Shown here in pieces: positions 19,099 through 20,631 of a stretch of 36,681 nucleotides of DNA. The stretch spans positions 1-36,681 of the forward strand of contig JAVHMA010000031.1 of NCBI GenBank assembly GCA_031081715.1, in the 5' to 3' direction. Each line of letters starts with the position of its first letter. Position 1 is the first letter of the stretch. The stretch is from Armatimonadota bacterium. Its GTDB lineage: Bacteria > Sysuimicrobiota > Sysuimicrobiia > Sysuimicrobiales > Humicultoraceae. Under the pieces are notes generated by a model, which ran no database searches, had not been told where the DNA came from, and saw nothing but the letters and a program-made list of their open reading frames with translations. The translations under genes were made by a program, and so were the position numbers.

Positions 19099-19131
19099 GG
19101 GGAAACACTGAGGGACCCCGGGGGGAAGGCC

Positions 19132-20631
19132 ATGTACCCACAGTTCGCCTCCGCAAGTGGCACGCCATCGCAGCGACAACGCGACATCTACCTCCTCAGC
19201 CCCAGGCTCCTTCCCCCTGAGGTCATAGCGGTGGCGTTCGCCAAGACCTCCCGGAGCCCGAAGCCGTTCCGGGAGATCGCCCATGAGCTCACCGAGGCGG
19301 CCTCGAGCGAGTTCCACGAGAAGTGGGTGCTGGGCTACGGCCACGCCTCGGTGGCCGAGCACGCCGTGCTGCACCTGGCCTTCGAGAACGTCTCGCGCCT
19401 GGCGGTCGAGTGCCTGGAGAGCAACCGCCTGTGCTCGTACACCGAGAAGTCCACGCGCTACCAGATCTTCGACACCTTCTACGTACCGCCGGCCGTGGCC
19501 GCGGGGCCGCACGCCCGGCGGTACGTCGCCGCGTGCCGGCGGCTGTTCGAGACCTACCAGGCGAGCCTGGACCCGGTGCGCCGGGTCGTCGAGGCCGCGT
19601 CCCCGCGGCGCGACGACGAGACCGAGCGCGTCTACCAGGCGCGCATCCGGTCGCGGTACGTGGATGTCTGCCGCTTCCTGCTCCCGTGCGCGACCGTCGC
19701 GAACGTGGGCATGACCGCCAACGCGCGCGCGCTGGAGCACGCCATCGTCAAGATGCTCTCGCACCCGCTCGAGGAAGTCCGCGCGATCGGCGAGGAGGTC
19801 AAGCGGGTCGCGCAGGCCGAGGTCCCCACGCTGGTCAAGTACGCCGCGCCGAATCCCTACCTCATGGAGACGGCGCGGGCACTGGCCGCGGAGGCCGCGG
19901 CCGATCCGGCGGAGGCCCCATGGCGTCCCGATCCGGCGGTGCGGCTCGTGCACTACGACCGTGACGCCGAGACCCGCATCGTGGCGGCCTGCCTGTACCG
20001 CCACGGCCGGATGCCGTACACGCGCGCCTGGGACCGGGCGGCGCGAATGACCCCCGAGGAGCGGGCAGCGGCGATCGCGCAGGCCCTGTCACGGCTGGGC
20101 CGCCACGACGCGCCGCTCCGCGAGGCGGAGCACGCCGCGTACACCTTCGAGATCGTCTGCGACCAGGGCGCGTACTTCGACCTCAAGCGCCACCGCATGA
20201 TGACGCAGAGCCCGCAGGCGCCCACCGTGGAGCTGGGCTACGCCGTGCCCCGCATGATCGACGAGGCCGGGATGGGCGACGCCTACCGCGAGGCGATCGA
20301 GGAGGCCGCGGAAGCCGCCCGGGCCGTGGGCCGCGACCACCCTGACGAGGCGGCCTACCTGGTCACCAACGCCCACAACCGCCGTATGCTGGCGACGATG
20401 AACCTGCGCCAGCTCTACAGCCTGGTGCCGCTCCGCGCGCGCGAGGCCGGGCACTTCTCCTACCGGCGCATCGCCCTGCTCATCCACGAGGCGGTCCGTG
20501 CGGTCCATCCGGCCCTGGTCGCCCACGTCCGATTCGGCTACGACCCGCCGGCCGCCGCGGAGCTGGAGGCCCGGTGCTTCACGGAGGTGGCGTGCACCGC
20601 CGGGCGGCTCACCGCGCCCGCCGGCGGCTAG
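19132..20631 (+). CDS. thyX: Tandem-domain FAD-dependent thymidylate synthase (ThyX)
   Basis: ThyX makes dTMP from dUMP using methylenetetrahydrofolate, FAD and NAD(P)H. This 499-residue protein is about twice the usual ThyX length and contains two ThyX-like halves, roughly 10-245 and 265-475. The N-half has YGHASVAEHAVLHLAFENVS, then Arg99 and Ser107-Thr-Arg109-Tyr110 (SYTEKSTRY), but Ser97-Asn98 where ThyX has Arg-His. The C-half has EHAAYTFEIVCDQGAYFDLK and Arg353-His354-Arg355, but Ala363 and Thr365 where the serine and arginine belong. The second conserved region appears in both: NARALEH near 197 and NLRQLYSLVPLRAREAGHFS near 424. An active site shared between halves is inferred. ATG 19132 follows a GGGGGGAAGG ribosome-binding site. 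Confidence 0.88.
   Translation: MYPQFASASGTPSQRQRDIYLLSPRLLPPEVIAVAFAKTSRSPKPFREIAHELTEAASSEFHEKWVLGYGHASVAEHAVLHLAFENVSRLAVECLESNRLCSYTEKSTRYQIFDTFYVPPAVAAGPHARRYVAACRRLFETYQASLDPVRRVVEAASPRRDDETERVYQARIRSRYVDVCRFLLPCATVANVGMTANARALEHAIVKMLSHPLEEVRAIGEEVKRVAQAEVPTLVKYAAPNPYLMETARALAAEAAADPAEAPWRPDPAVRLVHYDRDAETRIVAACLYRHGRMPYTRAWDRAARMTPEERAAAIAQALSRLGRHDAPLREAEHAAYTFEIVCDQGAYFDLKRHRMMTQSPQAPTVELGYAVPRMIDEAGMGDAYREAIEEAAEAARAVGRDHPDEAAYLVTNAHNRRMLATMNLRQLYSLVPLRAREAGHFSYRRIALLIHEAVRAVHPALVAHVRFGYDPPAAAELEARCFTEVACTAGRLTAPAGG

What the first reader, a model, noticed from the sequence alone, without database searches (positions are those of the whole stretch)
19132..20631. Tandem ThyX whose two halves carry complementary parts of the signature motif
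The ThyX signature is Arg-His-Arg, then seven residues, then Ser-x-Arg-Tyr. The N-half has Ser97-Asn98-Arg99 followed in register by Ser107-Thr-Arg109-Tyr110: the second part is intact and the first lost. The C-half has Arg353-His354-Arg355 followed by Ala363 and Thr365: the first part is intact and the second lost. Each half also keeps a version of the NxR second motif. This looks like duplication, fusion and division of labour, so that a fold needing four identical chains could be built from two heteromeric halves. I recall roughly 500-residue double ThyX proteins in a few bacterial phyla but not a mechanistic description.
Basis: partly seen in the sequence, partly recalled or inferred. Interest (0 to 1): 0.65.

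Follow-up and report, generated by a model that had tools for sequence, protein, structure and literature searches.

The report
Double ThyX with a split active site
This bacterium makes the DNA building block thymidylate with an enzyme whose gene was doubled and fused long ago, and each half has kept a different part of the active site, so working sites can apparently form only where the two unlike halves meet.

Summary
The ORF at 19132-20631 (499 aa) holds two ThyX domains (PF02511). The N-half keeps S107-x-R109-Y110 and has lost RHR; the C-half keeps R353-H354-R355 and has lost SxRY. This is a lineage-wide pattern: in 110 tandem ThyX proteins (own phylum, Chloroflexota, one Patescibacterium, plasmids and phages) all N-halves have S-x-R-Y/F, none has the first Arg of RHR, all C-halves have R353 and R435, and none has S-x-R-Y. 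The split matches ThyX structures: one subunit supplies RHR and the Arg activating dUMP, another supplies the dUMP phosphate anchors and SxRY. A third supplies the folate/FAD His and Ser, also an N-half property here. So a homodimer should be a pseudo-tetramer with two complete composite sites and two dead ones. The protein is the only thymidylate synthase in its genome; among 31 relatives tandem ThyX, ordinary ThyX and ThyA never co-occur, and DHFR appears only with ThyA. AlphaFold supports both folds. The domain duplication in Chloroflexi was noted in 2009 as uncharacterised (PMC3224940); I found no account of the split site. Composite site and oligomer are inferred, not shown.

The parts
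19132..20631 (+). Tandem thyX gene, 499 aa
   Evidence: Open frame; two PF02511 matches; orthologues at 59-77% identity with the same start region; AlphaFold model pLDDT 89.7, pTM 0.88
19120..19129 (+). G-rich stretch GGGGGGAAGG just upstream of ATG, possible ribosome-binding site
   Evidence: Sequence read; inference only
19132..19860 (+). N-half: ThyX domain supplying SxRY and dUMP phosphate-anchor residues
   Evidence: PF02511 100 bits; hits PDB ThyX chains by sequence; hhalign 97.5% to canonical ThyX
19342..19350 (+). H71 and S73, equivalents of T. maritima H53 and T55 (M. tuberculosis S71)
   Evidence: Aligned; H 93/110 and S/T 110/110 in the family; C-half has P328/R330 instead
19396..19398 (+). 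R89, equivalent of M. tuberculosis R87 (dUMP phosphate)
   Evidence: 87/110; C-half equivalent is Q345
19420..19428 (+). S97-N98-R99: degenerate RHR of the N-half
   Evidence: no Arg at 97 in any of 110
19450..19461 (+). S107-T108-R109-Y110: intact S-x-R-Y of the N-half
   Evidence: S 110/110, R 110/110, Y/F 110/110
19672..19674 (+). R181, equivalent of M. tuberculosis R172 / T. maritima R147 (dUMP phosphate)
   Evidence: 110/110; C-half has A408 there
19720..19728 (+). N197-A-R199: NxR motif of the N-half
19861..19935 (+). Linker between the halves, variable in length and sequence
   Evidence: Gappy, unconserved stretch; lower model confidence
19936..20631 (+). C-half: ThyX domain supplying RHR and the dUMP-activating Arg
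   Evidence: PF02511 66 bits; modelled alone pLDDT 89.9 and matched to ThyX structures, best E 1.7e-9, TM 0.68 to 1o27
20188..20196 (+). R353-H354-R355: intact RHR of the C-half
   Evidence: R 110/110, H 109/110, R 108/110
20218..20226 (+). A363-P364-T365: where S-x-R would be in the C-half
   Evidence: no S-x-R-Y/F in 110
20401..20409 (+). N424-L-R426: NxR motif of the C-half
20434..20436 (+). R435, equivalent of M. tuberculosis R199 / T. maritima R174 (dUMP activation)
   Evidence: 110/110; N-half has Met/Leu/Trp there

Best explanation
The gene encodes a flavin-dependent thymidylate synthase (ThyX) made of two fused, diverged ThyX domains, and it is the organism's only thymidylate synthase. 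In ordinary ThyX four identical subunits form four identical sites, each built from three subunits. Here the roles are divided. The C-half plays the 'A' subunit: RHR holds the FAD, and R435 activates dUMP. The N-half plays the 'C' subunit: R89, R109 and R181 anchor the dUMP phosphate, and S107 and Y110 cover the reaction centre. The N-half probably also plays the 'B' subunit (H71, S73, R199 at folate and FAD). Two chains should pair into a pseudo-tetramer with two complete sites at N:C interfaces and two degenerate ones, about one FAD and one dUMP per 55-kDa chain. Shown here: the residue split, its universality, both folds (as predictions), mutual exclusion with other synthases. Inferred: the activity, the composite sites, the 2 live + 2 dead count, and the assignment of the B role.
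For: Residue split in register with canonical ThyX and fixed in 110 of 110 tandem proteins, including divergent Chloroflexota groups and plasmid and phage copies. Subunit roles taken from PMC6514825 (R95, R199 from subunit A; R87, S105, R107, Y108 from C; S71, R190 from B), PMC11940539 (H53 from a third monomer) and PMC9571937 (R87, R107, R172 on the phosphate) predict which residues should stay together. Only thymidylate synthase found in the genome. Among 31 relatives: 8 tandem, 12 canonical ThyX, 10 ThyA, 1 incomplete genome with none, no overlaps; DHFR in 7 of 10 ThyA genomes and 0 of 20 with either ThyX type. 39 of 40 other tandem genomes lack ThyA. Both halves under purifying selection, pN/pS 0.14-0.39. 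Each half has the ThyX fold in predicted models. In phage Tunturi_5 the tandem gene follows a dCMP deaminase gene, the dUMP supplier.
Against: No activity, oligomer or ligand data. The AlphaFold model is of one chain and shows no interface between chains. N188 and R190 are kept in both halves, so the B role is not cleanly assigned; H71 is Asp in 17 of 110. R99 (third residue of RHR) is still Arg in 101 of 110 N-halves, so the degenerate site may keep some FAD contact. NCBIfam's thyX model scores below its cut-off (70.1 against 87.9 bits).
Confidence: 0.85

Rival explanations
1. One half is catalytic and the other is a scaffold or regulatory pseudoenzyme, as in some double-domain deaminases.
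For: Each half has lost part of the signature; the C-half evolves somewhat faster than the N-half in several pairs.
Against: Neither half has a full set: the N-half lacks the equivalents of R95 and R199 in every sequence, the C-half lacks SxRY in every sequence and an Arg at the R172 position in the listed letters. A scaffold half would not keep exactly the complementary set invariant.
Confidence: 0.06
2. The protein is a ThyX-related flavin-dependent pyrimidine methylase with another substrate or product, like PolB of Streptomyces cacaoi, and thymidine is salvaged.
For: Low sequence similarity to characterised ThyX; PolB (4p5b) is among the structural matches.
Against: Sole candidate synthase in the genome and mutually exclusive with ThyA and ThyX in relatives; absence of DHFR as in ThyX organisms; next to dCMP deaminase in a phage.
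Confidence: 0.05
3. The pattern is neutral decay of a redundant duplicate domain, without division of labour.
For: Loss of motif residues is what decay would look like in a single sequence.
Against: The same complementary residues are kept in all 110 sequences, spanning several deep groups, and both halves are under purifying selection.
Confidence: 0.01

Closest known systems
Canonical homotetrameric ThyX (FDTS; T. maritima TM0449, M. tuberculosis ThyX; PF02511)
   Same: Fold of both halves, active-site residues taken together, genomic role as sole dTMP synthase without DHFR
   Different: Two fused unlike domains; no half has the full RHR-x7-SxRY signature; only two of four sites can be complete
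Domain-duplicated ThyX of Chloroflexi noted by Valas and Bourne 2009 (PMC3224940)
   Same: Very probably the same protein family: duplicated ThyX as sole thymidylate synthase in most Chloroflexi and a few other species
   Different: That paper says only that it is duplicated and uncharacterised; the passage found gives no motif analysis or mechanism
Thermus thermophilus Thy1 with an extra C-terminal domain (PDB 6j61)
   Same: ThyX with additional C-terminal sequence; appears among the structural matches
   Different: Listed chains are about 240 residues, so not two full ThyX domains (only the entry title and length were seen)
Duplicated-and-fused enzymes with one composite site, such as pepsin versus retropepsin, or the single-chain herpesvirus dUTPase (from general knowledge)
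   Same: A homo-oligomeric enzyme became a single chain whose halves keep different parts of the site
   Different: Unrelated folds and reactions; here fusion still seems to need dimerisation

Membership tests
ThyX (flavin-dependent thymidylate synthase) | Sequence match to Pfam PF02511 over the gathering score | tested here: met
   Two matches, 100 and 66 bits against 24.8
ThyX (flavin-dependent thymidylate synthase) | NCBIfam equivalog TIGR02170 over its cut-off | tested here: not met
   70.1 bits against 87.9; the model describes contiguous single-domain ThyX
ThyX (flavin-dependent thymidylate synthase) | RHR-x7-SxRY signature in one domain | tested here: not met
   RHR only in the C-half, SxRY only in the N-half; the full set exists only across the two halves
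ThyX (flavin-dependent thymidylate synthase) | ThyX fold | tested here: met
   Predicted whole-chain model and C-half model match ThyX crystal structures
ThyX (flavin-dependent thymidylate synthase) | Homotetramer with four sites at three-subunit interfaces | not testable with these tools
   No multimer prediction or coordinates available; a pseudo-tetramer of two chains is inferred
ThyX (flavin-dependent thymidylate synthase) | dTMP synthesis with FAD, NADPH and methylene-tetrahydrofolate | not testable with these tools
   Indirect support: sole synthase, no ThyA, no DHFR
Duplicated ThyX of Chloroflexi (PMC3224940) | Two ThyX domains in one chain, sole thymidylate synthase | tested here: met
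   about 55 of 151 Chloroflexota genomes have the tandem form and the nearest relatives outside the window's own phylum are Chloroflexota

The most novel reading that the evidence does not exclude
Tandem ThyX is an ancient and widespread obligate two-chain pseudo-tetramer with exactly two live sites, each made from one C-half and both N-halves, and the two degenerate sites have taken on another fixed job (allosteric, or structural binding of FAD or folate), since P328, R330, Q359 and Q362 of the C-half and R99 of the N-half are themselves nearly invariant in the window's group. The very divergent L163/L177 group could then be a second, independent fusion with the same division of roles.
Probability: 0.2. 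Interest if true: 0.75.

Novelty: new variant of a known kind. Interest (0 to 1): 0.6.

Why it matters
It would be a natural experiment that separates the subunit roles of the ThyX active site. Residues that act in trans in a homotetramer are written here on different halves of one chain, so their roles can be mutated one at a time, which homotetrameric ThyX does not allow. It also means that a large group of bacteria (much of Chloroflexota, part of the window's phylum, some plasmids and phages) depends on, or carries, a thymidylate synthase that a standard naming model scores below its cut-off and that has not been characterised.

Tried and rejected
Searching for a hidden second synthase: no ThyA in the genome and no ThyX outside this gene. 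Looking for unfused N-like and C-like partner genes among odd Chloroflexota matches: the 275-aa hit in G211 is a single-domain ThyX with a changed RHR (L193), and G191 carries a canonical ThyX, so no split pair was found. Independent origins of the tandem: 23 of 25 N-halves and 23 of 25 C-halves form single clades and one origin for all is not rejected (p-AU 0.61), so convergence is not claimed. Five apparent RHR matches in N-halves were a regex artefact (downstream RYR or a shifted match). Literature searches for a tandem ThyX mechanism found only PMC3224940.

Full report
Observation. The frame 19132-20631 (+) gives 499 aa without a stop. Pfam Thy1 matches it twice, 100 and 66 bits. S107-T-R109-Y110 in the N-half, R353-H354-R355 ... 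A363/T365 in the C-half, NxR in both. Profile alignment of each half to canonical ThyX, M. tuberculosis ThyX included, gives the equivalences used below. The C-half finds no PDB chain by single-sequence search but matches ThyX by profile and by predicted structure.

More than one sequence. Relatives were taken from the genome's own phylum, from genome contigs (349 stretches with a relative, best 80 kept, mostly Anaerolineae and other Chloroflexota), from a 151-genome draw of Chloroflexota (20 divergent members read), and from viral contigs, phages and plasmids. In 110 proteins: N-half S107, R109 and R181 110/110, position 110 Tyr or Phe in all, no Arg at position 97, position 208 never Arg; C-half R353 and R435 110/110, H354 109/110, R355 108/110, no S-x-R-Y/F in the motif region, no Arg among the listed letters at position 408. 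The pattern holds in five or more sequence groups, including Bacillus/Paenibacillus plasmid copies whose C-half has RHN.

Why the split makes sense. A review of the M. tuberculosis and H. pylori structures assigns one active site to three subunits: A gives R95-H96-R97 and R199, C gives R87, S105, R107 and Y108, B gives S71 and R190 (PMC6514825). R87, R107 and R172 hold the dUMP phosphate (PMC9571937), and H53 of T. maritima comes from a third monomer (PMC11940539). Mapped here, every A residue is kept in the C-half and lost in the N-half, except that R97's equivalent R99 is still Arg in most N-halves; every C residue is kept in the N-half and lost in the C-half (R87's equivalent varies in the divergent groups). 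Of the B residues, H71 and S73 are N-half only, while NxR is in both. So an N:N or C:C site would be incomplete and only an N:C site can be whole. In a 222 tetramer with two N and two C halves this leaves two whole sites and two degenerate ones. This last step is inference; no interface was modelled.

Function. The genome has no ThyA and no other ThyX. Among 31 relatives the tandem form (8), canonical ThyX (12, two of them split by inteins) and ThyA (10) never co-occur; one 69%-complete genome has none. DHFR, needed to recycle the product of ThyA but not of ThyX, is found in 7 of the 10 ThyA genomes and in none of the 20 with either ThyX form. Of 40 other tandem genomes 39 lack ThyA; the exception, G041, has partial ThyA-like matches on two contigs that also carry a canonical ThyX. 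In the Chloroflexota draw about 55 of 151 have the tandem form, counted as two or more matches per genome with three doubtful cases removed; the six genomes with a full-length or nearly full-length ThyA have no ThyX. Both halves are under purifying selection (pN/pS 0.14-0.39). Phage Tunturi_5 carries the tandem gene directly after a dCMP deaminase gene and Euzebya plasmid pEDY32-46I carries it near dCTP deaminase. These support dTMP synthesis; none proves it. The genomes compared are related, so the counts are not independent events.

Structure. AlphaFold gives pLDDT 89.7 and pTM 0.88 for the whole chain with the same order of helices and strands in both halves, and matches to ThyX crystal structures over one half. 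The C-half alone gives pLDDT 89.9 and matches ThyX at E down to 1.7e-9, TM 0.68 to 1o27.

History. In the tree of halves, 30 N-halves form one clade and 30 C-halves another; with motif columns removed and plasmid and phage copies added, 23 of 25 each do so, with similar branching in both, and a single origin for all is not rejected. The window's protein is nearest to members of its own phylum, then to Chloroflexota. In the window's phylum the tandem form is confined to one family and one further genome, which fits acquisition from Chloroflexota, though this was not tested formally.

What is known. [quoted passage not shown] Six literature searches found nothing on its motifs or mechanism; most subscription journals are not in the library. 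I therefore call it a new variant of a known kind: its existence is known, the split site is, as far as I could find, not described.

Gene neighbourhood. Around it lie NUDIX, metallophosphoesterase, HAD phosphatase, class-V aminotransferase, band-7, cupin and FAA-hydrolase genes; nothing there bears directly on thymidylate.

Noticed in passing
L028/L037 (G022:C12) and L029/L038 (G025:C76); probably G075:C13: Canonical ThyX genes of related genomes are interrupted in frame between RHRTA and SVNEYSTRY by an intein-like insert (starts CLAAGT, ends IVTHN), right inside the ThyX signature.
   Followed up: partly
L193 (G211:C12, 31500-36500): Single-domain ThyX with QWWKYVVGSDHTMEAWNESSRRY: SxRY kept but RHR replaced.
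   Followed up: no
L163 (G198) and L177 (G160): Very divergent tandem ThyX with the same polarity (N-half SQRY, C-half RHR); long branches, origin unclear.
   Followed up: partly
L188, L189 (plasmids of Paenibacillus rhizovicinus and Bacillus licheniformis, about 210-230 kb): Tandem ThyX on large plasmids, C-half motif RHN instead of RHR.
   Followed up: partly
L098 (Patescibacteria contig): Tandem ThyX with KRNR in place of KRHR in the C-half, the only change of that His seen.
   Followed up: no
L190/L192 (Parabacteroides distasonis record NZ_OY725790.1): Tandem ThyX a few genes from a DHFR gene on a record labelled plasmid that looks chromosomal by gene content; it may have replaced thyA.
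   Followed up: no
G092, G102, G135 and G100, G188, G226: Chloroflexota genomes without ThyX: some have only partial ThyA-like matches in 500-600 aa frames, and three large genomes have neither.
   Followed up: no
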